Source: Deltaproteobacteria bacterium
Lineage (GTDB): Bacteria; Myxococcota_A; Polyangia; JAAYKL01
Length of the DNA stretch: 32,786 nt
Assembly (NCBI GenBank): GCA_028713995.1
Contig: JAQTNF010000044.1
Location: 1 to 32,786, forward strand
Direction of reading: 5' to 3'
The position numbers were made by a program, and so were the translations under genes. The notes under the pieces were generated by a model. The model ran no database searches. It was not told the DNA's origin and saw nothing but the letters and a program-made list of their open reading frames with translations. Position 1 is the stretch's first letter. Every line of letters begins with the position of its first letter. Positions 6,908 to 21,831 of the stretch are shown here, piece after piece.

Positions 6908-6923
6908 CGGCATGACACTTGCA
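6908..6923 (+). promoter_or_regulatory. Sigma-54 (-24/-12) promoter of the T2SS operon
   Basis: CGGCATGACACTTGCA fits the consensus TGGCAYG-N4-TTGCW at every position but the first, with the required GG-N10-GC spacing (GG 6909-6910, GC 6921-6922). Transcription would start near 6934, 12 bases before the gspC ATG at 6946. The NtrC-type activator is encoded immediately upstream and repeated palindromic sites lie about 100-150 bp before it. A TTGACA at 6903-6908 could be a sigma-70 -35 box, but no good -10 box follows at 17 bases. Confidence 0.75.
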
Positions 6924-6945
6924 TTCAATGTCGAGCAGCCCCGAC

Positions 6946-7944
6946 ATGAAAACGTTGTTGAAAAATCGTTTTTGGATTGTCGAGCTGGCGGCGCTGGCAA
7001 TCTCGGCTTTTTTCGTCGGGAGCGGAGTGAGCGAGATGGTGGCAGGAGAGATGGCAGGCAGCGAGCAGGTCGGCATGATCGCCGAGGGGCCCATGCCCGT
7101 CCGCGCACGGCCCAGACCCGCCCCCGAGCGCTCGGCGATCGACGGCACGCCGATCCTGGAGCGGAACATCTTCGACTCCCAGACCGGGCCCATCGGCAAG
7201 GATCGAGGCGGGCAGGACGCCGGTAACGCGCCTGCCGCGGAAGATACGTCGGGGTTCGTGGAGGTCCGCAGGTGCGCCGCGGGCCCGCTCAAGATCCTGA
7301 CAACGGTCGTGCAGGCCGACGACGCGGAATCGTTCGCGCTGCTCGGCTCCGGGACCGGCACGAGCTATTGCAAGGCCGGGACCGATTTCGCCGGGCACAC
7401 CGTGGAGAAGATCGGCTGGCGCTACGTGATTCTGAGGGACAGGGTGGGCGGCCTATGCTACCTGGATCTCATCGGGCTCGACGACCCGCTGTACCTGGTC
7501 AGGGAGCCGGGTGAGAAGGCTGCCGCGACGGGCGGCGCAGCGGCGGCGGGCGGTACGAAGGCGGCCGCCGACAAGGTCGCCCTGGACTTCGCGGGAGCGG
7601 TCCGCAACATGGCCCCCGGCGTATGGCAAGTGGACGAGAAGCTCATGAGCCGCCCCATCGAGAGGATTGAGGAAAGCTTGGGCTTCGTGCAGGTCCTGCC
7701 GCACTCGGATCCCGACGCGGAAGGAGCGCAGGACGGTTTCACCTTGCATGGCATCCGGCTCGGATCGCTCCTCGATCGCATGGGCCTCAGGAACGGGGAT
7801 CTGGTGACGCGGGTCGGAGGTATGGAGCTCGCGAGCCCCGAGGCGGGGGCCGCGGCTCTCGCGCTGCTGCACAAGCGCGGGGAGACGTTGGTGAGCGTCG
7901 AGCGGGACGGCAAGCCCATCTCGATCAGGCTCCAGGTTCGTTGA
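6946..7944 (+). CDS. gspC: T2SS inner-membrane protein GspC
   Basis: A 332-aa bitopic inner-membrane protein that links the inner-membrane platform to the GspD secretin and helps select substrates. One transmembrane helix lies near the N-terminus (about residues 9-29, WIVELAALAISAFFVG). A Pro/Arg-rich linker follows, then the homology region (about 60-180, starting near DGTPILERNIFDSQTG), and a C-terminal PDZ domain (about 265-332, with LHGIRLGSLLDRMGLRNGD). ATG 6946 is chosen because the predicted sigma-54 transcript begins near 6934, which would exclude the ATG at 6928. The ribosome site is weak. It is the first gene of the T2SS operon, 37 bases before gspD. Confidence 0.9.
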   Translation: MKTLLKNRFWIVELAALAISAFFVGSGVSEMVAGEMAGSEQVGMIAEGPMPVRARPRPAPERSAIDGTPILERNIFDSQTGPIGKDRGGQDAGNAPAAEDTSGFVEVRRCAAGPLKILTTVVQADDAESFALLGSGTGTSYCKAGTDFAGHTVEKIGWRYVILRDRVGGLCYLDLIGLDDPLYLVREPGEKAAATGGAAAAGGTKAAADKVALDFAGAVRNMAPGVWQVDEKLMSRPIERIEESLGFVQVLPHSDPDAEGAQDGFTLHGIRLGSLLDRMGLRNGDLVTRVGGMELASPEAGAAALALLHKRGETLVSVERDGKPISIRLQVR

Positions 7945-7981
7945 AGCGGTCCAAAGGGGCCGCAAAGGGAGTTGCGAATTG

Positions 7982-10776
<2,795 letters not shown>

Positions 10777-10780
<4 letters not shown>

Positions 10781-12543
10781 GCGAGCCGCGCGACAACTTC
10801 ATCGGCGAGATCCTGGTCGAGCACGGCGTGCTGCGGCCCGAGGATCTCGAGCGGATCATCGCAGCCCGCGCGGAAAAAGGCGGCTCGTTCGTCGACGTGC
10901 TCCTCGCCTCCGAGACCGTCGACGAGAAGCGATTGTGGAGCACCGTCGCGACCGAGATGGACATGGCGTTCGCCGAGGCGATCGACGTCGAGAAGATCGA
11001 GAGCCACCTGGTCGCGGATCTGCCCATCGTGTTCGCCAAGAGCCACAGGGTGCTGCCCATCGGCGAGGACCCGGCCGGCGTGCACGTGGCGTGCGCCAAC
11101 CCGTTCGACATGGCCGCGCTCGACGCGGTGCAGACCATCGTCGGGCGGCCCGTGGTGCCGGTGGTCGTGCCGGGCGAGGTCATCCTCGACGCCATCAACA
11201 AGGTCTACGGCCGCGGCGAGGGAGACGCGGAGCTCGGAGAGAAGGAGGGCGCGCAGGAGGAGGAGCTCACCGACCTCATCGACGTCAAGGACGAGGCGCC
11301 CATCATCCGATGGGTCAACTCGCTCTTCTTCGAGGCGGTCAAGCACCGCGCGAGCGACATCCACATCGAGCCCCTCGATCGCGACGTGGCCGTGCGCTAC
11401 CGGGTCGACGGCGTGCTGCAGACGGCCAAGCGGGCCAAGAAGGCCTTCCTGCCGTCAATCATCTCGCGCGTGAAGATCCTCTCCAAGCTCAACATCGCTG
11501 AGAAGCGCCTGCCGCAGGACGGCCGCATCGCGCTCAAGATCGCCGGCAAGAACATCGACGTGCGCGTCTCCTCCATCCCCACGAGCCAGGGCGAGCGCGT
11601 GGTCATGCGCCTGCTCGACAAGGAGTCGGTGCTCCACGACGTGAGCGATCTCGGGTTCTGGCCCGATCACTACGCCCTCTTCCACGGGCTCATCCTGCGG
11701 CCGCACGGCATCATCCTCGTCACGGGCCCCACCGGCTCAGGCAAGACGACCACGCTGTACGCGGGCCTCCAGCAGATCAACACGCCGGACAGGAACATCC
11801 TCACGGTCGAGGATCCGGTCGAGTACGACATCGAGGGCATCGGCCAGATGCACGTCAACCCCAAGATCGACCTCACCTTCTCGAACGGGCTGCGCGCCTT
11901 CCTGCGCCAGGATCCGGACGTCATCATGGTGGGCGAGATCCGCGACCGGGAGACGGCCGAGATCGCCATCCATGCCTCGCTGACCGGCCACCTCGTGATG
12001 TCGACCATCCACACCAACGACGCGCCGGGCGCGCTCACGCGGCTCGTGGAGATGGACATCGAGCCGTTCCTCGTGGCGTCGTCGATCATCGGCATCCAGG
12101 CCCAGCGCCTGGTGCGCCTCCTATGCCCCAAGTGCCGCGAGCTCTACGAGCCCGAGCGCGAGCAGCTCGTCGAGCTGGGCATCGATCCGGACGACCCGTA
12201 CAAGCCGAGCCGCAAGCCCGCGAGCCCGCTCTACACGGCGGGGTGGGAGAAGCTCAGGCCCCTCGTGCCGCTCGTGCCGGGCAAGGTGCGGCTCCACCGC
12301 GCCGTGGGCTGCGACTTCTGCCTGGGCACCGGCTACTACGGGCGGACGGGCCTGTACGAGATGGTGATGATCACCGACACGATCCGGACCAACATCCTGC
12401 GGAACTCCGACTCGAACACCATCAAGCAGGTGGCCAAGGCCGATGGGATGGTCAATCTGCGCGAGGACGGCGCGCGCAAGGTGCTCACGGGCACGACCAC
12501 GGTCGAGGAGGTGCTCCGCGTGACCCACGAGGACGCGGGCTAG
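10777..12543 (+). CDS. gspE: T2SS assembly ATPase GspE
   Basis: A 588-aa cytoplasmic hexameric ATPase that powers pseudopilus assembly. The N-terminal domain (about 1-150) begins FIGEILVEHGVLRPEDLE, which docks to GspL in known systems. The ATPase core has Walker A GPTGSGKT (317-324), a Walker B region VIMVGEIRD (382-390), and histidine motifs in SLTGHLVMSTIHTND. The zinc-binding tetracysteine is complete: C450, C453, C512 and C515. The GTG start overlaps the gspD stop (GTGA), with AGGAGGA at 10761-10767 at good spacing. The same frame is open far upstream, antiparallel to nothing and simply overlapping gspD; that extension is a GC artefact. Confidence 0.97.
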
Positions 12544-12562: not shown

Positions 12563-13783
12563 GTGCCGGTTTTCGAATACCAGGGAATACGGAAGTCCGA
12601 CGGCCGCCCGGTCAAGGGGCTCAAGGACTCCGACGCGGAGAGGAGCCTTCGGGCGGCCTTGAAGCGCGACGGCGTGCTCGTCACCGGCATCCGCGAGAAA
12701 AGCGCCGGGCAGCGGCGCGGCGAGATCGACTTCAAGAAGTTTTTTCGACGCGTGACGCGAATGGACGTGGCCCTGTCCACGCGCCAGCTCGCCACCCTCA
12801 CCAAGTCGGGCATCTCCCTCGTCGAGGCCCTGAACGCCGTCATCGACCAGAGCGAGAAGCCCGATCTCAAGACCGCGCTCACCGACGTGCGCGACCAGGT
12901 GAACCAGGGCACGAGCCTGTCCGAGGCGTTCGGGCGGCACGCCAAGTACTTCGACCACCTGTACTGCAACATGGTCAACGCGGGCGAGCAGTCCGGCACG
13001 CTCGACCAGGTCCTCGGACGGCTCGCCGACTTCATCGAGGCGCAGAACCGGCTGCGCAGCAAGGTCGTCTCGGCCATGGCCTACCCGGCGTTCATGGCCG
13101 TCATCGGCACCGTGATCATCGGGGTCATGATGGTCGTGGTGGTGCCCAAGGTCACCAGCATCTTCGAGAACTTCGGCCGCGAGCTGCCCTGGTACACCTC
13201 GGTGCTCATCGCCACGAGCAACTTCATGCGCGGGTACTGGTGGCTCCTCCTCGTCCTCATCGTCGGCGCGATCGTGGGGTTCCGCAGGTGGAAGCGCACG
13301 CCGGCGGGCCTCTACGACTGGCACCGCTTCGTGCTGTGGGCGCCCATCTTCGGCTCGCTCGCGATGATGCTCGCCATCTCCAGGTTCTCAAAGACGCTCT
13401 CCACGCTGCTCGCCTCGGGCGTGCCTCTGCTCACGGCCATGGACATCACCAAGGGCGTGCTCGGGAACGTGGTGCTCGAGAAGGTCATCGTCGAGGCGAG
13501 CTCGTCGATCCGCGAGGGCGAGAGCATCGCCGATCCGCTCAAGGCGTCCGGTCGGTTTCCGCCCATCGTCACGCACATGATCGCCATCGGCGAGCGATCC
13601 GGCCAGCTCGAGGAGATGCTGGAGAACGTGGCCGGGGCCTACGACGCGCAGGTCGACTCCAAGATCCTCGCTCTCACGTCGCTGCTCGAGCCGGTGATGA
13701 TCGTCATCATGGGCGCGGGCGCGTTCGGCATCGCCTTCTCGATCCTGATGCCGCTCATCCAGATGAACGAGTTCGTGCAATGA
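12563..13783 (+). CDS. gspF: T2SS inner-membrane platform protein GspF
   Basis: A 406-aa polytopic protein at the centre of the inner-membrane platform. It opens with the family signature MPVFEYQGI and has two homologous cytoplasmic helical domains: about 70-195 (STRQLATLTKSGISLVEALN) and about 270-395 (FSKTLSTLLASGVPLLTAMD). Membrane helices lie near 172-200, 218-240 and at the C-terminus (VMIVIMGAGAFGIAFSILMP). Length and order match the family. It starts at a GTG 19 bases after gspE, and its stop overlaps the next start (ATGA). Confidence 0.96.
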   Translation: MPVFEYQGIRKSDGRPVKGLKDSDAERSLRAALKRDGVLVTGIREKSAGQRRGEIDFKKFFRRVTRMDVALSTRQLATLTKSGISLVEALNAVIDQSEKPDLKTALTDVRDQVNQGTSLSEAFGRHAKYFDHLYCNMVNAGEQSGTLDQVLGRLADFIEAQNRLRSKVVSAMAYPAFMAVIGTVIIGVMMVVVVPKVTSIFENFGRELPWYTSVLIATSNFMRGYWWLLLVLIVGAIVGFRRWKRTPAGLYDWHRFVLWAPIFGSLAMMLAISRFSKTLSTLLASGVPLLTAMDITKGVLGNVVLEKVIVEASSSIREGESIADPLKASGRFPPIVTHMIAIGERSGQLEEMLENVAGAYDAQVDSKILALTSLLEPVMIVIMGAGAFGIAFSILMPLIQMNEFVQ

Positions 13784-14193
13784 GAGACGGCGATCCCATC
13801 GTCCTCGGCGACAAGGGGCGGCACAGGAAGTCGCTCGGCGTGCTGCGCAGGCGTCTCAAGCTCACCGCGCTCGCGGCGGTGGCCGCCATGTTCGTGAGCT
13901 ACGCCGTGCAGGACGCCGACCGGGAGCTGAAGGCGAGGCAGGCGCTCGTCGACATCTACAAGGTGATCGCGGCGGCGAGGCTGTTTCGGGCCGACAACGG
14001 GCGCTGCCCGGACGGGGTCGCGGAGCTCGCGGCGCCGCCTTCCGGCACGCCCTACCTCAGGTGGACGAACGACCCGTGGGGGACGCCCTACGCCGTCGCC
14101 TGCCCGAGCCCCACGGCCCCGAACAGCGTGGAGGCGTCTTCGGCCGGGCCGGATCGCGCGCGGGGCGGGAACGACAACATCTCGAGCCGGTGA
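13780..14193 (+). CDS. GspG-like protein lacking a prepilin cleavage motif
   Basis: A 137-aa protein. Its C-terminal half resembles the soluble domain of the major pseudopilin GspG: ARLFRADNGRCPDGVAEL, then YLRWTNDPWGTPYAVACP, then a late Gly/Asn/Asp segment (SSAGPD, GNDNISS) like the GspG calcium-site region. Its N-terminus differs. Instead of a G-FTLIE prepilin signal it has about 28 charged residues and then an ordinary hydrophobic helix (LTALAAVAAMFVSYAVQ), so prepilin peptidase should not process it. I infer an inner-membrane-anchored GspG-like accessory protein, perhaps a cap or adaptor for the pseudopilus. The start overlaps the gspF stop, so it is translationally coupled and sits just before the true gspG. 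Confidence 0.8.
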   Translation: MRDGDPIVLGDKGRHRKSLGVLRRRLKLTALAAVAAMFVSYAVQDADRELKARQALVDIYKVIAAARLFRADNGRCPDGVAELAAPPSGTPYLRWTNDPWGTPYAVACPSPTAPNSVEASSAGPDRARGGNDNISSR

Positions 14194-14216: not shown

Positions 14217-14648
14217 ATGATGGAAAAACAGGTGAAGTCGAAGAGGCCTCGCGCGACGAGGCGCGCCGCCGAGCAGGGCATGACGCTCATCGAAATCATG
14301 ATCGTCGTGATCATCATGGCGACAATCGCCACGGGCGTGGCCGTCGCCGTGGTCCCGGCCATGGGGCGCGCGAACGTCAAGCAGGCGGCGACCGACGCGA
14401 ATTCCGTGCGTTCCGCGGTGATGATGTACGTCGCCGAAAACCCGGGCAAGTGCCCGAGCATGGACGACCTCAAGAGCGGCAAGTTCATCGACAAGACCAA
14501 GCGCACGACCGACCCGTGGGACAAGGAGTTCGTCATCCGCTGCACCGAAGGCGACGATCCCGAGGTGTTCTCCCTCGGGCCGGACGGCCAGGAGGGCGGA
14601 TGCGATCCGGGGCGCGGGCCCGACGACGGGTGCAAGCAGAAGAACTGA
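14217..14648 (+). CDS. gspG: T2SS major pseudopilin GspG
   Basis: A 143-aa major pseudopilin, the main subunit of the periplasmic pseudopilus. The prepilin signal is complete: a basic leader of 21 residues ending EQG, cut before MTLIE, then the hydrophobic helix IMIVVIIMATIATGVAVAV. The first mature residue is Met rather than Phe, which is allowed. The C-terminal domain has TDPWDKEFVIRC and SLGPDGQEGG, the region that binds calcium in known GspG. The tail ends in a Cys/Asp/Gly-rich stretch. AAGGGAGAG (14206-14214) precedes two adjacent in-frame ATGs (14217 and 14220). Confidence 0.95.
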   Translation: MMEKQVKSKRPRATRRAAEQGMTLIEIMIVVIIMATIATGVAVAVVPAMGRANVKQAATDANSVRSAVMMYVAENPGKCPSMDDLKSGKFIDKTKRTTDPWDKEFVIRCTEGDDPEVFSLGPDGQEGGCDPGRGPDDGCKQKN

Positions 14649-14666: not shown

Positions 14667-15500
14667 ATGGCGCGCGTTCGCACAAACGGTTTCACGCTGA
14701 TCGAGGTGATGGTGGTCGTCATCCTCATCGCCATCATCACGGCCGGGGCGGCCCTCGGGATCGGCAGTCTCGATCAGGCGAAGCTCAGGAGCTCGTGCTG
14801 GATGCTGGCCTCGGCCGCGCGCTTCGCCTATTCGCGCGCCGTGACCCAGGGCACGACCGTGCGCCTCGCGCTCGACTTCGAGGGGCGCACCATGCAGGTG
14901 CAGGAGACCAAGGGGCGCGTGGTGCTCAGCAAGGACGACGAGTCGGGCGAGGGGCTCCCTCCGGCGGGTGTCGAGGGCGCGGACGCCGGGGTCCCCTCGG
15001 GAGGGCGGCTCGAGAGCATGGACATCCTCGGGGGCCTTTCCGCCCTCGGCGGTTCGGGCGGCAAGAGCGCGGCCGGGGAGACCGGCGGCGCGGCGAGCGG
15101 GCTCACGGACATGATGAGCTCCCTGGCGTCGGCCCCCATCACCGACCCCTTCCTCGCCTCGTTGCAGGGCACGAGCGGCGTGCCCGCGGGCAGGATCGGC
15201 TACCGCGGACCCAAGTTCGCGCCGCTGCCCGGCAAGCGCGGCGAGCCGCGTTCCCTCGAGGGGGACACGATCTTCAAGGCCGTCTACACGCCGCACGAGC
15301 AGAAGGCGCGCACCGACGGCAAGGCGTACATCTACTTCTTTCCCGGCGGCATGACCGAGCACTCGATCGTCCAGCTCTCGGACGGCGGCGACCGCACCTA
15401 CTCGGTGGAGATCCATCCCCTGTCGGGCCGCGCGATCATCCACCGCGAGGCGGTCGAGCCCGAGGACGATCTCGACAAGCTGCAGGAGGCCGCGGAATGA
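14667..15500 (+). CDS. gspH: T2SS minor pseudopilin GspH, enlarged
   Basis: A 277-aa minor pseudopilin with a short leader (MARVRTNG) cut before FTLIEVMVVVILIAI. The post-signal region CWMLASAARFAYSRAVTQGTTVRLALDFE is the typical GspH start. The protein is larger than most GspH because of a Gly/Ser/Met-rich insert (about 95-170) with strings such as MDILGGLSALGGSGG and LTDMMSSLAS. The C-terminal beta domain resumes with IYFFPGGMTEHSIVQLSDG and YSVEIHPLSGRAIIH. The stop overlaps the gspI start (ATGA). Confidence 0.9.
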   Translation: MARVRTNGFTLIEVMVVVILIAIITAGAALGIGSLDQAKLRSSCWMLASAARFAYSRAVTQGTTVRLALDFEGRTMQVQETKGRVVLSKDDESGEGLPPAGVEGADAGVPSGGRLESMDILGGLSALGGSGGKSAAGETGGAASGLTDMMSSLASAPITDPFLASLQGTSGVPAGRIGYRGPKFAPLPGKRGEPRSLEGDTIFKAVYTPHEQKARTDGKAYIYFFPGGMTEHSIVQLSDGGDRTYSVEIHPLSGRAIIHREAVEPEDDLDKLQEAAE

Positions 15501-16183
15501 CCGGGAGGGGACAGGCGCAACGAGGGTTCACGATCCTGGAGATCATGATCGCGATCCTCATCCTGTCCGTGTCGGTCGTCTCCATCTTCGGAGCCCAGTT
15601 CGGCGCCGTGTCCACGGTCGAGTTCGCGCGCGGGAGCACCATGGCCATGCAGCTCGCGCGCTGCCGGATGAGCGAGGTCGAGCTCAAGGTGGTGACCGAG
15701 GGCGGCTTCGTCGAGGGTGACGTGAACGAGAACGGCGACTGTTGCGAGATGCTCGCCGGCGAGGCCGACGTGACCCCGTACACCTGCCGGACCGAGCTCA
15801 AGACCGTGGAGCTGCCCGACATCTCCAACATGATGAGCGGCGGGCCCGACGGCGGGCTGCTCGACAGCGTGCTCGGATTGGGGTCCGGAGGAGGCCTCAT
15901 GGGTGCCGGCGGCGGCGACATGGTGACGAGCCTCGCCCCGATGATCACCGACCTGCTCAAGCAGGCCATCCGCCGGGCGACCGTCGTCGTCGAGTGGAAA
16001 CAGGGCGCCCGGAACCGCGAGGTGACGATTACGCAGTACCTGGTCCACCCCACGCAGGGACCGCTCCAGCTGCTCCAGGGCGCCGCCGCCATGGACGAGG
16101 CCAACGAGGCGGCGCTCGACCAGACGGGTCTCGGCGCAACGAGCGGCCCGAGCGGCGGAAGATCGATGGAGGGGACGCCGTGA
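15497..16183 (+). CDS. gspI: T2SS minor pseudopilin GspI, enlarged
   Basis: A 228-aa minor pseudopilin. The leader MTGRGQAQRG is cut before FTILEIMIAILILSVSVV, and the helix continues to AMQLARCRMSEVELKV, the usual GspI pattern. GspI nucleates the pseudopilus tip with GspJ and GspK. A Gly/Met-rich insert (about 110-150; MMSGGPDGG, GLGSGGGLMGAGGGD) interrupts the periplasmic domain, so it is longer than the usual 120-130 residues. The domain resumes with ATVVVEWKQGARNREVTITQYLV. It overlaps gspH and gspJ by four bases each. Confidence 0.9.
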   Translation: MTGRGQAQRGFTILEIMIAILILSVSVVSIFGAQFGAVSTVEFARGSTMAMQLARCRMSEVELKVVTEGGFVEGDVNENGDCCEMLAGEADVTPYTCRTELKTVELPDISNMMSGGPDGGLLDSVLGLGSGGGLMGAGGGDMVTSLAPMITDLLKQAIRRATVVVEWKQGARNREVTITQYLVHPTQGPLQLLQGAAAMDEANEAALDQTGLGATSGPSGGRSMEGTP

Positions 16184-16893
16184 CCGGTGCGCGCGCCAGA
16201 TCCGAGGGCCTCACCCTCATCGAGGTGATGGTCGCCATCACGGTGCTGGCGATGATCTCGCTCACCATCTGGACCGCCACCAGCCAGACCGCCCGCACGC
16301 GGGACATCGTGGAGGAGTCCCACGACCGGCTGCACCAGGTGCGCACCGCCCTGAACATGATCACGCGCGACCTCGGGTCGGCCTTCCTGTCCATGCACCG
16401 GGCCACGTCCGAGCCGACCCACGACACGGTCTTCATCGGACGCGACCGCGGCGACGAGGACCGCGTGGACTTCGCCTCGTTCACGCACGAGCGCCGCTAC
16501 CTGAACGCCAACGAGTCCGACCAGTGCGAGGTGGGCTACTTCCTTGCGGACGATCCGAACGTGTCCGGCCGCAAGAACCTGGTCAGGCGCGAATCGCCCG
16601 TCCTGGACCTCGAGCCCCTCGAGGGCGGGCAGTACCTGGTGCTGGTGGAGGACGCGACGATCTTCGACTTGCAGTACTTCGATCTGGCCATGAACGAGTG
16701 GCAGGATACGTGGGACACGACCGAGGCAACGGGCGAGGGCGGCATCCTGCCCTTGCAGGTGCGCATCCGGCTGGGCGTACACGACCGGCTCGGGAGGCAG
16801 GTCGTGTACGGCACGCAGACACCCGTGCCCATGCGCACCCCGATCTGGCGCAAGCCCTTCATCCCGGGCCCGCCGGTGATGGTGACCAAGTGA
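16180..16893 (+). CDS. gspJ: T2SS minor pseudopilin GspJ
   Basis: A 237-aa minor pseudopilin, normal in length for the family. The leader MTGARARSEG is cut before LTLIEVMVAITVLAMISLTIW. The periplasmic domain shows the GspJ pattern: VRTALNMITRDLGSAF, RVDFASFTHERRY, VGYFLADDP, LVRRESPVLD and DLQYFDLAMNEWQDTWD. GspJ joins GspI and GspK at the pseudopilus tip. The GTG start overlaps the gspI stop, and its own stop overlaps the gspK start (GTGA in both cases). It lacks the large Gly-rich insert seen in H and I. Confidence 0.95.
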   Translation: MTGARARSEGLTLIEVMVAITVLAMISLTIWTATSQTARTRDIVEESHDRLHQVRTALNMITRDLGSAFLSMHRATSEPTHDTVFIGRDRGDEDRVDFASFTHERRYLNANESDQCEVGYFLADDPNVSGRKNLVRRESPVLDLEPLEGGQYLVLVEDATIFDLQYFDLAMNEWQDTWDTTEATGEGGILPLQVRIRLGVHDRLGRQVVYGTQTPVPMRTPIWRKPFIPGPPVMVTK

Positions 16894-18092
16894 GACGCGT
16901 CGCCAAGGACAGCGAGAGGGGCATCGCCCTGCTCATGGTGCTCGTGGCGCTCACCGTGCTCGGGGCCATGACCGCGGACTTCATGGAGACGAACGAGACG
17001 TACGTGGCGACCGCCGTCAACGAGCGCGACGCGGTGAAGGCGGAATACCTGGCCCGGTCGGGCGTGAACCTGGCGCGGCTCCTGCTTTCGGTCCAGCCGA
17101 TCCTGGGCAAGTCGCTCAACTTCCCGTTCTGGCAGTACGCCGACATGATCATGTCGCCGTTCTCGGGGCCCGAGGCGGGCGGGGGGCTTACGGACATGGC
17201 GGGCATCGACCTTCAGGGCGCAAAGGGGCTGGGCGTTTCCGAGGGGAACTTCACGGTCAAGATCCTCGACGAGGACTCGAAGATCAACGTGAACATGGCG
17301 AGCGATCAGGTCATGCGCAAGCGCATGGTCGACCAGCTGGCCATGCTGATGGCGCCCGTCGAATACGATCCCCTCTTCGACCGCCAGAGCTCGGACGGCC
17401 AGTTCCTGGCCCGCGAGGACGTCATCTGCGAGATCATCGACTGGACCGATCCCGACGAGGATCGCTGCGACTTCTCCGGGAGCGAGGATCCCTCGTACTA
17501 CCAGTCGCTCGACACCCCGTACGAGCGCAAGAACGCGCCCTTCGACAGCCTCGAGGAGCTTCACCTCGTGCGCGGGGTCGACGACGACGTGTGGTCCACG
17601 TTCGTCGATCCGGATCCATCCAAGCCCGAGGCGCGGGTCATGACCGTATGGGGCAAGGGCAAGGTGAACGTGAACACGGCGCCGGCGCAGGTGCTCTTCC
17701 CGCTCGTGTGCATGATGGCGACCGACGACACGGGCGTAAGCGCGTGCCTCGATCCCATGCAGCGGCTCAACCTGCTCGCCATCCTGCAGGCCATGATCAC
17801 CTTGAGGACCTTCATGCCGTTCGGCACGGTGCGCGACTTCGTGGCGGCCATCGAGAGCCCCGAGGAGCGGCTGTTCCTCCCGCTCGCGGGCTTCCCCCTG
17901 CCGGGAAAACGCCTGGCGCGGCAGCTCGTCACGACGCGCAGCACCGTTTTCTCCATTTACGCGGATGGGACCGTGGGCAAGGTGACGAAACGCATCCACG
18001 TGGTCGTGGACACCGAGGGCACGGACATGCTCGACTCGGCCAAGACCGTGGCCGCCTCGGGCGGCAGCGTGCTCTACTGGCGGATGGACTAG
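16890..18092 (+). CDS. gspK: T2SS pseudopilus tip protein GspK
   Basis: A 400-aa tip pseudopilin, the largest of the set. The leader MRRVAKDSERG precedes IALLMVLVALTVLGAM; the missing Glu at position 5 of the mature protein is normal for GspK. The periplasmic part has the helical insertion typical of the family (DEDSKINVNMASDQVMRKRMVDQL, VICEIIDWTDPDE) and a second half with GKGKVNVNTAPAQVL. DPDEDRCDFSGSED may be a metal site. A short Gly-rich stretch (SGPEAGGGLTDMAGIDLQG, about 88-108) resembles the inserts in GspH and GspI. GTG start overlaps gspJ. Confidence 0.94.
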   Translation: MRRVAKDSERGIALLMVLVALTVLGAMTADFMETNETYVATAVNERDAVKAEYLARSGVNLARLLLSVQPILGKSLNFPFWQYADMIMSPFSGPEAGGGLTDMAGIDLQGAKGLGVSEGNFTVKILDEDSKINVNMASDQVMRKRMVDQLAMLMAPVEYDPLFDRQSSDGQFLAREDVICEIIDWTDPDEDRCDFSGSEDPSYYQSLDTPYERKNAPFDSLEELHLVRGVDDDVWSTFVDPDPSKPEARVMTVWGKGKVNVNTAPAQVLFPLVCMMATDDTGVSACLDPMQRLNLLAILQAMITLRTFMPFGTVRDFVAAIESPEERLFLPLAGFPLPGKRLARQLVTTRSTVFSIYADGTVGKVTKRIHVVVDTEGTDMLDSAKTVAASGGSVLYWRMD

Positions 18093-18101
18093 GAGGCATA
18101 C

Positions 18102-19706
18102 GTGGCGTACCGCGTCATAGGACTGGATCTCGGCAGCCACAGCGTGAAGGCGATGGCCCTGAACGTGGGCCTGCGCGGGGCCGAGCCGACGCTGTTCGAG
18201 GTGGAGCCCGTGGAGCTCGACGACGACGGGCGCTCGACCATGCCCGCGATCCTGGCGGCGGCGGGGAGGCTCGCAAAGAGGCTCGCGGCCGAGGGCGAGC
18301 CCGTGCACGTGGCGCTCCCCGGGGAGCGCGTCTCGACGCGCGTGGTGCGGCTCCCGATGAGCGCCGCGCGGCGCCTCGAACAGGTTCTCAAGTTCGAGCT
18401 CGACGACACGCTGCCCTTCGACATCGACGACGCGGTGTTCGACCACGTGGAGGTCGCGCGCGACGGCGAGGGCATCACGGTGGTCGCCGCGGCCGTCCCG
18501 AGCGGCGAGGTGAAGGCGCTCGTCGACGGCCTGACCGAGCAAGGCGTGGGTGCCCAGGAAGTGGGCGTGGCGCCGCTCTCCTACGGCGCGCTCCTCGCCG
18601 CCGGAAAGAAGAAGGAGGAGGCGGCGGCGTCAAAAGTCACGGCGTTCATCGATCTCGGGCACGAGCGCACCAACGTGGCAGTGCTCGGCGATCGCGTCCC
18701 CACCTTCCGGACCATCCTGCGCGGCGGGCGAGATCTCACCGCGGTGCTGGCCGAGAAGGGGAAGGTGGCGTTCGCCGAGGCAGAGGCCTACAAACAGCGC
18801 GACGGGCTTACGGGGCGCGTGGGCGACGTGCTGCGCGAGGCCCTGCGGCCGCTCGTGCGCGAGATCCGGCAGACCCTCGCCGGACACCAGGCGGCGGGCG
18901 GCCGCCCGGTCGAACGGATTATTCTGGCCGGCGGCGGAGCCGGCATGCGCGGCATCGATCAGCTCCTCGCCGACGAGGTCGGCGTCGCGGCTGAGACCTT
19001 CCACTTCTCGATGGACGACGTGCACGTCTCGGATCGCGCGGTCGCCGCTCCGGCCCCGGCCGCGCTCGCATACGCGCTCGCGCTGCGCGAGACCATCCCC
19101 AAGGCGCGCCGCATGAACCTTCGGCGCGGCGAGCTCGTCTTCAAGGGCGACAGGGCGCTCCTCAAGAAGCGGGCGCTGTGGATGGGCGTGTGCGTCCTTG
19201 GCATCCTGCTCTCGTGGATGTTCGCCAGCTACGCGCAGTACCGGAGCCTCAAGGTCGAGAACGAGGCGTCGAAGGCCAAGCTGGAGGAGGTCACGAAGCG
19301 CCTCTTCCGCCGCCCGATCCTCGAAAAGGAGGAGATTGAGCGGGAGCTCGGCGGCGAGACCGTCGAGGAGGCGCCCGTGCCGGCCAAGGACGCCTTCGAT
19401 ATCGTCGTCGAAATATCCCGCCGCATCCCCACCTCGGTCGTGCACGACGTGGAGGATCTGGAAATCAAGCCCAAGCGCATCACCATCAGGGGCATCGTGG
19501 ATCCGGAGCTCAAGACCGAAGGGGCCGCGCGCGTCGCGGGCGACGGCGGCGCGGACGAGTCCGCGGGACAACTCTCCCCGACGGACCTCATCCAGCAGAA
19601 GCTCTCGGAGTGGAAGGAGTGTTTCACCACCATCCGCATGGGGCGGGTCCAGGCCGACGAGATGCGCAAGCGCTACCAGATGGACATCGAGAGCAAGTGT
19701 CCGTGA
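18102..19706 (+). CDS. gspL: T2SS inner-membrane protein GspL
   Basis: A 534-aa bitopic protein that couples GspE to the membrane platform. The cytoplasmic actin-like part (about 1-345) has the PilM/GspL-type opening YRVIGLDLGSHSVKAMAL, an inner FIDLGHERTNVAVL and a GGGAGMRGIDQLLADEV turn. A transmembrane helix follows near 362-380 (MGVCVLGILLSWMFASYA), then a coiled linker and a periplasmic ferredoxin-like domain containing AFDIVVEISRRIPTSVVHD. It is somewhat longer than the common 400 residues. The GTG start has AGGAGG at 18091-18096, and the stop overlaps gspM. Confidence 0.93.
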   Translation: MAYRVIGLDLGSHSVKAMALNVGLRGAEPTLFEVEPVELDDDGRSTMPAILAAAGRLAKRLAAEGEPVHVALPGERVSTRVVRLPMSAARRLEQVLKFELDDTLPFDIDDAVFDHVEVARDGEGITVVAAAVPSGEVKALVDGLTEQGVGAQEVGVAPLSYGALLAAGKKKEEAAASKVTAFIDLGHERTNVAVLGDRVPTFRTILRGGRDLTAVLAEKGKVAFAEAEAYKQRDGLTGRVGDVLREALRPLVREIRQTLAGHQAAGGRPVERIILAGGGAGMRGIDQLLADEVGVAAETFHFSMDDVHVSDRAVAAPAPAALAYALALRETIPKARRMNLRRGELVFKGDRALLKKRALWMGVCVLGILLSWMFASYAQYRSLKVENEASKAKLEEVTKRLFRRPILEKEEIERELGGETVEEAPVPAKDAFDIVVEISRRIPTSVVHDVEDLEIKPKRITIRGIVDPELKTEGAARVAGDGGADESAGQLSPTDLIQQKLSEWKECFTTIRMGRVQADEMRKRYQMDIESKCP

Positions 19707-20320
19707 AGAGGAGGAAGATGGCGTCCGTGCTACAAAATACGATTTCGAGGATGACGGCCCGGGAGCGGCGGCTCGCGATCGCCATGCTGGGGAGCTTCGG
19801 CGCGATGATCGTTTTCGTTTCCGTGTTCCTGGTGCGCTCCTCCATGTCCGACATGATCGACGAGAACGCGGAGATGGCGGATGCCCTGCGGCTCATCTCC
19901 CTGCGCCAGCAGGACTACCTGGACAGGCAGCGCGAGATCGACAGGCGCGGCCGCGGCACGGCCAAGCCGACCCCGCTGCGCACGCTGGTCGACAAGATCT
20001 CGAAGGAGCTCGGCGTCGAGGTGCCGGACATCAAGGAGCTGCCGGACCAGAAGCGCGGGACGCAGTGGATCGAGAACTCGGTGGTGCTCTCGATCCGCGA
20101 GGTGGGGCTCGAGAAGATGACCCGCTTCATGGAGTCGGTGGAAGGCAACCGCAAGAAGTTTCCCATCGCCATCACCGATCTGCAGATCCGCAAGCGCAGG
20201 CGCGTCCCCGACGTGTACGACGTTGAAATCACCATCTCCACCTACGAGCAGAGGCGGGCGGAAAACGCGGCGGGCGGGAAGCGGCCTGTTCCGCCGGCGG
20301 CCCGCGAGGGAGCGAACTGA
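19703..20320 (+). CDS. gspM: T2SS inner-membrane protein GspM
   Basis: A 205-aa bitopic protein that pairs with GspL in the platform. A short basic cytoplasmic segment (MTARERRLAIAMLG) leads into one transmembrane helix (GAMIVFVSVFLV). A periplasmic coiled stretch follows (MIDENAEMADALRLISLRQQDYL), then a ferredoxin-like fold domain ending DVYDVEITISTYEQ. GTG 19703 is chosen because it overlaps the gspL stop in the style of this operon. An ATG at 19718 directly after AAGAGGAGGAAG is a fair alternative and would shorten the protein by five residues. The sequence family is diverse, so position and topology carry much of the call. Confidence 0.87.
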   Translation: MKRRKMASVLQNTISRMTARERRLAIAMLGSFGAMIVFVSVFLVRSSMSDMIDENAEMADALRLISLRQQDYLDRQREIDRRGRGTAKPTPLRTLVDKISKELGVEVPDIKELPDQKRGTQWIENSVVLSIREVGLEKMTRFMESVEGNRKKFPIAITDLQIRKRRRVPDVYDVEITISTYEQRRAENAAGGKRPVPPAAREGAN

Positions 20321-21831
20321 TGGGCGGCGACGCGAGAAAAAGGCTCCTCAAGATCATCGGCTACCCGGTGTTCTTCCTCGTGCTCTTCGCGGCCTTCCTG
20401 GTCGTCACGTTCCCGCTCGACCGCTTCGCTCCGCTCATCAGGAGCAAGCTCTCGTCGTTTCTCGAGCGGGACGTCACCATCGGCGACGTCTCCCTGTCGC
20501 TCCTCGGCGACATCGTGCTCAAGGGCGTGGAGATCGAGGTGCCTTCCGACGGCGCCGAGCCGGAGCCCGAGCCGGTTACGGACGGAGCGGGGAAGGACGG
20601 GAAGAAGCCCGCCAAGGCGCCGCGCCTCACCTACTTCGTGGACGAGATGAGCATCGACGTGGGGCTCTTCGCGTTCCTCGTAGGAAGCCTCCACCTGGAT
20701 ATCGAGGCCGAGGCCATGGGCGGAACCATCGACGTGTCCTACGAAGGGCCCATGCCAGGAGAGCAGGCGCAACCCGCGCCGGCCCCGTTGCGACGCCGCG
20801 GCGCGGCCAAGGGGGAGGAGGCGCAGGCGGAGGCGACCGCGGACGAGGAGCCGGTCTCGCTGCGCGTGGAGGTGGCGGACGTGGATCTCTCGAAGGCCTA
20901 CGACCTGCGCAGGAAGCTGCCCGTGCCCGTGAGCGGGACCATCGGCTTCACGTTCGAGATCGAGAGCCCCACGGGCCGCTTCGATGCGGCGAACGGCTCG
21001 CTCGCGCTCAACGCCGCCGGCGTAGCCGTCGGGGACGACAAGGCCAAGGTCATGGGCATGACCGTCGACCGGCTGCTCCTCGGCGACTTCGGCGGGGAGA
21101 TGGAGATCAAGGACGGGGCGGGCAAGGTGAAAAAGATCGAGATCCGCTCCAAGGACTTCGAGGCCAGCGTACAAGGCGAAATTTCGTTCGAGACCCCGCT
21201 CTCGCGCAGCCGCCTCGACCTCTACATGATGTTCAAGTTTCTCGAGGCGTACAAGAACAAGAGCGAGCGCACGCGGCTCCTCGTTCCGAGCCTCGACACC
21301 TTCAGCAAGGATCTGAAACGCGCCCACCGCACGGACGGCTTCTACGGGTTCAGGTATCGCGGCGCCTTCGGGATTGCCCGGTTCATCCCGTCCAAGGACT
21401 ACGCGCCGGAGCCGAAGGCCAAGCGCACGCGCGAGCCGAAGAGGAGCCGCCGTACGCCAGGGAGCGGTCGACGTCCGGCCGCGGATTCGCCGCTCGGCCC
21501 GGCCGCGCCGCCTTTGGGCGAGGGTCCGGCCATCCGCGAGCCCGCAGGCGATACGCCGGGCGGATTCGGCCGCGAGCCCGTGGATCTGCCGCGGCCGACC
21601 ATGGAGGAGCGGCCGCCTTTGGGCGTGGTCGGCAACAAGCCGGGCACGGCGCCGGAGATCGCGCCGCCCGAGGAGACCCCCACCGAGCAGGCCCCACCCG
21701 AGCAGGCCCCACCCGAGGAGGTCGCACCGCCAGAGGAGATCCCCCCCGAGCAGGCCCCACCCGAGCAGGGCAGCGGCGAGGCGCCCCCTGAGCAAGGGTC
21801 GGAGAACCAGGGCGCCGACACCGGGGCATAG
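20320..21831 (+). CDS. gspN: T2SS protein GspN with Pro/Glu repeat tail
   Basis: A 503-aa protein of the GspN type found in delta-class T2SS operons. An N-terminal membrane helix (IIGYPVFFLVLFAAFLVVTF) precedes an AsmA-like periplasmic opening (FPLDRFAPLIRSKLSSFLER, VTIGDVSLSLLGDIVLKGVE). A long beta-rich domain runs to about 365. The last 140 residues are low complexity: a Lys/Arg-rich stretch, then tandem APPEQ and PPEE units. GspN function is poorly defined; a periplasmic or cell-envelope-spanning role is likely, and the Pro/Glu tail could span the cell wall. It overlaps gspM by one base (TGATG). Confidence 0.87.
   Translation: MGGDARKRLLKIIGYPVFFLVLFAAFLVVTFPLDRFAPLIRSKLSSFLERDVTIGDVSLSLLGDIVLKGVEIEVPSDGAEPEPEPVTDGAGKDGKKPAKAPRLTYFVDEMSIDVGLFAFLVGSLHLDIEAEAMGGTIDVSYEGPMPGEQAQPAPAPLRRRGAAKGEEAQAEATADEEPVSLRVEVADVDLSKAYDLRRKLPVPVSGTIGFTFEIESPTGRFDAANGSLALNAAGVAVGDDKAKVMGMTVDRLLLGDFGGEMEIKDGAGKVKKIEIRSKDFEASVQGEISFETPLSRSRLDLYMMFKFLEAYKNKSERTRLLVPSLDTFSKDLKRAHRTDGFYGFRYRGAFGIARFIPSKDYAPEPKAKRTREPKRSRRTPGSGRRPAADSPLGPAAPPLGEGPAIREPAGDTPGGFGREPVDLPRPTMEERPPLGVVGNKPGTAPEIAPPEETPTEQAPPEQAPPEEVAPPEEIPPEQAPPEQGSGEAPPEQGSENQGADTGA
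21685..21769 (+). repeat. 15-bp tandem repeat coding for EQAPP units
   Basis: GAGCAGGCCCCACCC occurs in tandem at 21685-21699 and 21700-21714, again at 21748-21762, with a partial copy after it. It encodes the repeated Glu-Gln-Ala-Pro-Pro of the GspN tail. Copy number may vary between strains, with no frame change because the unit is five codons. Confidence 0.7.

What the first reader, a model, noticed from the sequence alone, without database searches (positions are those of the whole stretch)
13780..14193. GspG-like protein without a prepilin signal
The C-terminal half matches the GspG soluble domain (DNGRCPDGVAEL, NDPWGTPY, late Gly/Asn/Asp loop), but the N-terminus has an ordinary membrane helix and no G-FTLIE motif. 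It is encoded between gspF and gspG and coupled to gspF. It could not be assembled like a pseudopilin, so it may be a fixed GspG mimic that seeds, caps or gates the pseudopilus.
Basis: partly seen in the sequence, partly recalled or inferred. Interest (0 to 1): 0.6.

Follow-up and report, generated by a model that had tools for sequence, protein, structure and literature searches.

The report
Membrane-fixed GspG twin in secretion operon
A whole group of myxobacteria (Polyangia) carries, inside the operon for the type II protein-secretion machine, an extra gene for a look-alike of the secretion piston's main building block that has lost the tag needed to join the piston, so it is probably a fixed, previously undescribed part of the machine's base.

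Summary
Confirmed and extended. The ORF at 13780-14193 (137 aa, here 'X') lies between gspF (ATGA overlap) and gspG. It has a basic cytoplasmic tail, one membrane helix and a GspG head (Pfam T2SSG E=2.7e-9). The predicted fold is GspG (pLDDT 85.5, Z 10.0 to a solved GspG). It has no prepilin motif and no +5 Glu, and neither has any of the 45 X proteins in the core set.

X is a real family: 67 of 377 sampled genomes of the phylum have a full-length match at E<=3.3e-24, all in the window's class (Polyangia). Where checked it lies between gspF and gspG. Relatives without X have the same C-D-E-F-G-H-I-J-K-L-M-N operon minus X, so X is an added component. A GspF tree separates X-carrying from X-lacking systems by one branch (SH-aLRT 99). 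X and GspG are separate clades (98).

Across 45 X/GspG pairs the head is equally conserved (46% each). The membrane helix, the best conserved part of GspG (63%), is not conserved in X (18%). Most families also share a cytoplasmic motif (LPWExRG; [IV]LGxKxxRR here).

Best reading: a GspG paralogue anchored permanently in the inner membrane, an accessory assembly-platform subunit that docks or templates GspG. The anatomy is shown; the docking role is inferred. I found no published description.

The parts
13780..14193 (+). X: GspG paralogue without prepilin signal (137 aa + stop)
13780..13854 (+). N-terminal cytoplasmic tail (aa 1-25), basic; holds IVLGDKGRHR (aa 7-16), the window family's version of the conserved tail motif
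   Evidence: cytoplasmic by the positive-inside rule (mean 9.3 K/R vs 1.7 D/E before the membrane helix in 45 X proteins)
13855..13911 (+). single transmembrane helix (aa 26-44), sequence not conserved among orthologues
13912..13998 (+). periplasmic part of the long helix (aa 45-73), 62% mean pairwise identity within the family
13999..14190 (+). GspG-like globular head (aa 74-137) with near-invariant Cys76/Cys108 and the GspG calcium-type loop (aa 121-133)
12563..13783 (+). gspF, overlaps X by ATGA
14217..14648 (+). gspG, ordinary major pseudopilin with GMTLIE prepilin motif
14667..15500 (+). gspH
15500..16183 (+). gspI (approximate start)
   Evidence: operon order and prepilin motif
16177..16893 (+). 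gspJ (approximate start)
16878..18092 (+). gspK (approximate start)
18102..19706 (+). gspL
   Evidence: PilM_2, T2SSL
19610..20320 (+). gspM (start uncertain, probably further downstream)
   Evidence: (T2SSM, sub-threshold)
20320..21831 (+). gspN-like gene closing the operon in all five operons compared
6919..7944 (+). gspC-like (PDZ)
7979..10780 (+). gspD
10792..12543 (+). gspE (start approximate)

Best explanation
[quoted passage not shown] It arose once by duplication of gspG. It lost the prepilin cleavage site, the +5 glutamate and the conserved hydrophobic assembly helix, and gained an ordinary membrane anchor behind a conserved basic cytoplasmic tail. It should therefore stay in the inner membrane next to GspF with a GspG-like head in the periplasm. 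Most likely it works as a fixed docking or template subunit of the assembly platform: the head pairs with incoming GspG (or with the base of the growing pseudopilus) as one GspG pairs with another, while the tail ties it to GspF, GspL or GspE. Shown here: family, fold, absence of signal, operon position, single origin, conservation pattern. Inferred: topology from charges. Not shown: any physical partner and the docking role.
For: GspG fold: long helix 13-73 plus head, pLDDT 85.5; 14 best Foldseek matches are GspG; Z 10.0 to 3g20, with mature residue 1 of pilins falling on X residues 16-20, so X has an extra uncleaved tail. No prepilin motif and no Glu in the first ten membrane residues in 45 of 45. 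Conserved tail motifs. Across 45 X/G pairs the head is equally conserved (46% vs 46%), but the membrane helix is 18% identical in X against 63% in GspG: the head is constrained, filament-core packing is not. X is added to an otherwise identical 12-gene operon. GspF tree: 43 X-plus and 30 X-minus systems split by one branch, 99. X and G are separate clades, 98. Two X-minus lineages have a second gene of the same design behind gspG; in one of them the tree shows an independent duplication of its own gspG, 98. Two prepilin peptidases exist in the genome, so processing itself is available.
Against: No interaction, expression or secretion data. X is cleanly absent from one genome inside the clade (G161: gspF directly followed by gspG), so it is not indispensable in every lineage. 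The tail motif differs between families (LPWExRG vs LGxKxxRR) and is lost in genus g52, which weakens the claim of one fixed cytoplasmic partner. In families f14 and f23 the first Asp of the calcium-type loop is Ser, so the head is not a perfect GspG copy.
Confidence: 0.5

Rival explanations
1. X is a negative regulator: an unprocessed GspG decoy that pairs with GspG in the membrane or sits at the base of the pseudopilus and limits its length or blocks idle assembly.
For: The same anatomy serves a decoy: GspG-like head, membrane-locked, translationally coupled to gspF. Clean absence from one genome with the rest of the gspE-I region intact is easier for a modulator than for a core part.
Against: Conserved tail motifs and a head as conserved as GspG's over a whole clade suggest a positive structural role; X is almost never lost.
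Confidence: 0.22
2. The head of X does not bind GspG at all but serves another partner, such as GspC, the secretin periplasmic ring or secreted substrates, with the GspG fold reused as a scaffold.
For: GspG heads are reused elsewhere in the phylum on lipoproteins and stand-alone membrane proteins away from gspF. In f14 and f23 the calcium-type loop is altered.
Against: Strict position between gspF and gspG and strongly conserved periplasmic helix (62% within the window's family).
Confidence: 0.18
3. X is an unusual pseudopilin that is assembled into the filament without normal processing, for instance as an extra tip or stalk subunit.
For: Fold and operon position only.
Against: No cleavage site or +5 Glu in 45 of 45; basic residues sit where the first hydrophobic residues of a pilin would be; membrane helix unconserved. 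All four minor pseudopilins are present. Processing is held to be required before assembly (PMC10191384).
Confidence: 0.06
4. X is a decaying gspG duplicate without function.
For: Loss of the signal peptide is a usual first step of decay (general knowledge; no tool result supports decay).
Against: Kept as an intact coupled ORF across at least 13 families from one origin, with constraint on the head equal to GspG.
Confidence: 0.02

Closest known systems
GspG / PulG / EpsG, major pseudopilin of the T2SS
   Same: Periplasmic domain family (PF08334), fold, operon neighbourhood, disulfide and calcium-type loop positions
   Different: No class III signal peptide, no +5 Glu, membrane helix not conserved, uncleaved basic cytoplasmic tail; separate clade from GspG of the same genomes
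Minor pseudopilins GspH, I, J, K
   Same: Pilin-fold accessory T2SS subunits encoded in the same operon
   Different: These keep prepilin signals and enter the tip; X has none and is encoded in addition to all four
T2SS inner-membrane platform proteins GspF, L, M, C
   Same: Fixed in the inner membrane beside GspF; GspL and GspM also present a cytoplasmic part, one helix and a periplasmic domain
   Different: The periplasmic domain of X is a pseudopilin head
Mitochondrial T2SS GspG1/GspG2 (PMC8134430)
   Same: Two GspG paralogues in one system; N-terminal extensions
   Different: Those keep the polar anchor, the processing region and the +5 Glu; X has lost them

Membership tests
GspG major pseudopilin (TIGR01710) | T2SSG head domain | tested here: met
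   PF08334 37.5 bits, cut-off 21; all 17 X proteins scanned match
GspG major pseudopilin (TIGR01710) | whole-protein equivalog score | tested here: not met
   31.4 bits against 88.85. The window's true GspG also falls short (47.5 bits), so this alone does not decide
GspG major pseudopilin (TIGR01710) | class III signal peptide with G(-1) and Glu(+5) | tested here: not met
   0 of 45; no N_methyl match in 17 of 17; no upstream start
GspG major pseudopilin (TIGR01710) | conserved hydrophobic assembly helix | tested here: not met
   18% mean identity against 63% in GspG of the same genomes
GspG major pseudopilin (TIGR01710) | GspG three-dimensional fold | tested here: met
GspG major pseudopilin (TIGR01710) | polymerises into the pseudopilus | not testable with these tools
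   needs filament isolation
Minor pseudopilin (GspH/I/J/K) | prepilin signal and tip assembly | tested here: not met
   no signal; H, I, J, K are separate genes in the same operons
T2SS assembly-platform subunit | encoded in the T2SS operon beside gspF | tested here: met
T2SS assembly-platform subunit | permanently anchored in the inner membrane | tested here: inconclusive
   one hydrophobic helix and strong positive-inside tail in 45 of 45; no experiment
T2SS assembly-platform subunit | physical contact with GspF, L, M, C or E | not testable with these tools

The most novel reading that the evidence does not exclude
A pseudopilin was converted once, at the base of a large myxobacterial clade, into a permanent part of the T2SS platform: a GspG-headed protein with its own cytoplasmic handle that templates GspG addition and links the growing pseudopilus base to the motor, a connection that processed pilins cannot make because they have no cytoplasmic portion.
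Probability: 0.35. Interest if true: 0.78.

Novelty: new variant of a known kind. Interest (0 to 1): 0.62.

Why it matters
How GspG subunits are picked from the membrane and handed to the platform is poorly understood. A natural, membrane-locked GspG head that stays at the platform would be a ready-made probe for that step: it can be crosslinked, purified with its partners, and deleted without removing GspG itself. It also shows that the T2SS subunit list differs by clade, and that such proteins may be filed as 'GspG' by domain-based annotation although they cannot behave as pseudopilins.

Tried and rejected
An upstream start giving a prepilin motif: rejected. Phage or viral origin: no match in phage records or viral contigs. 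X as a replacement for a missing minor pseudopilin or platform gene: rejected, all twelve other genes are present with and without X. X as repeated recent duplication of gspG in each lineage: rejected by the tree, except in two X-minus genomes that carry their own later version. Mitochondrial GspG as a precedent without a prepilin signal: my recollection was wrong; the paper says its +5 Glu and processing features are kept. Resemblance of stretches upstream of gspG in L110 and L113, and of L130, to the X tail motif: weak; L110 and L113 may be upstream of the true start, and L130 is a 511-aa reading frame with several hydrophobic stretches; not used. Literature searches found no description of such a protein in the open-access library.

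Full report
What is there. The reading frame 13780-14193 codes for 137 residues and starts inside the stop codon of gspF (ATGA). Downstream come gspG (14217-14648) and gspH, both with ordinary prepilin signals, then gspI, J, K, L, M and a gspN-like gene; upstream are gspC, D and E. The protein, called X here, has a basic N-terminal tail of 25 residues, one hydrophobic stretch (26-44), a periplasmic helix and a head that matches Pfam T2SSG at E=2.7e-9 and solved GspG chains at E down to 2.5e-5. The genome holds only two T2SSG genes, X and GspG, side by side, and two prepilin peptidases.

Fold. AlphaFold2 with 17 orthologues gives one helix from 13 to 73 followed by a small head, mean pLDDT 85.5. 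The fourteen best Foldseek matches are GspG proteins. The best structural alignment is Z 10.0 over 97 residues to the EHEC GspG 3g20; other pilins follow at Z 3 to 7 and unrelated chains at 2.4 or less. In the alignments to full-length pilins, mature residue 1 falls on X residues 16-20, so X carries an N-terminal extension where a pilin is cleaved, and residues 23-27 (RRRLK) occupy the place of the first hydrophobic residues. A second model, of the Sandaracinus-type X, gives the same layout (pLDDT 82.6).

No prepilin signal. Pfam's N_methyl model finds GspG and GspH but not X, nor any of 17 X proteins. A search for the motif finds none in 45 X proteins; none has a glutamate in the first ten residues of the membrane helix; the tails average 9.3 Lys/Arg against 1.7 Asp/Glu, which predicts an N-in, C-out protein.

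Distribution. All 13 other sampled members of the window's family have X between gspF and gspG. In 377 genomes of the phylum, 67 have a full-length match at E of 3.3e-24 or better, all in the window's class; four more were recognised by inspection in family f27 and genus g52. The hits outside the class that I opened are true GspG with prepilin motifs. Named records with X are Sandaracinus, Polyangiaceae and other Myxococcales or Deltaproteobacteria MAGs, so the class is Polyangia. Finished or near-finished genomes (G249, G397, G411, G180) carry exactly one X. Compared operons are C-D-E-F-X-G-H-I-J-K-L-M-N (in the fifth, L143, no gspC match was found and the first match is gspD) or the same without X. 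In one genome inside the clade (G161) gspF is followed directly by gspG, a clean absence.

Origin. A tree of the part behind the membrane helix puts 45 X and 51 GspG on two sides of one branch (SH-aLRT 98). Adding GspG of other classes keeps X together apart from one long-branched Sumerlaeota sequence that joins it. An independent tree of GspF splits 43 X-carrying from 30 X-lacking systems by a single branch with support 99. So X was gained once and kept, with one observed loss. These are quick trees with SH-aLRT support only, and the X/G tree has few columns.

Constraint. Over 45 genomes with both proteins, mean pairwise identity in the head is 46% for X and 46% for GspG. In the membrane helix it is 18% for X and 63% for GspG; within the window's family 25% against 72%. 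The membrane helix of GspG is conserved because it packs in the filament core (established knowledge of type IV filaments); X is free of that constraint while its head is not. Most families also share a cytoplasmic motif, LPWExRG, replaced by [IV]LGxKxxRR in the window's family and lost in genus g52.

A second look at the same idea. Two genomes outside the X clade have, behind gspG, their own second GspG-like gene with a membrane helix and no prepilin motif: G022 (start codon overlapping the gspG stop) and G083. In the tree the G022 copy sits with its own GspG (98), so this design has arisen at least twice.

Mechanism. [quoted passage not shown] X fails each requirement for assembly but keeps the head and a cytoplasmic tail. 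The simplest reading is a fixed subunit of the platform that offers a GspG surface in the periplasm and a handle in the cytoplasm. Whether it helps (dock, template) or restrains (decoy, length control) assembly cannot be told from sequence.

Known or new. I found no paper describing such a protein (open-access library only). The nearest precedent, mitochondrial GspG paralogues, keeps the +5 Glu and processing features. X belongs to the T2SSG domain family but fails the defining features of a pseudopilin, so I file it as a new variant built on a known fold.

Noticed in passing
window 14217-14648 and L006-L011, L014, L016, L017 (GspG): In 10 of 14 GspG proteins of the window's family the C-terminal calcium-type ending (DD[ILV]) is gone, and each of these has extra cysteines instead: one in the long helix plus one in the tail (in L009 seen by eye, the script missed the helix one), or two in the tail as in the window. 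The GspGs that keep the ending lack these cysteines. Looks like a calcium-to-disulfide swap.
   Followed up: partly
L089 (G022:C586, about 44200-44600): A second, independently duplicated GspG-like gene behind gspG, GTG start overlapping the gspG stop, basic tail plus membrane helix, no prepilin motif.
   Followed up: partly
L121 (G083:C88, about 1000-1490): Same arrangement in another family: gspF, gspG, then a prepilin-less GspG-like membrane protein.
   Followed up: partly
L131 (G227:C1, about 2961000-2961680) and L138 5252-5698: GspG head domains on what look like lipoproteins; no other T2SS gene found around L138, surroundings of L131 not typical of a T2SS operon.
   Followed up: no
L136 335-1867 (G004, window's family): 511-aa reading frame with several hydrophobic stretches and a C-terminal GspG head, outside any T2SS operon.
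   Followed up: no
L137 4191-4598 (G055:C4, about 465200): Stand-alone protein with one hydrophobic helix and a GspG head, away from the T2SS operon of that genome.
   Followed up: no
L144 (G161): Clean absence of X between gspF and gspG inside the X-carrying clade; a natural comparison for what X does.
   Followed up: partly
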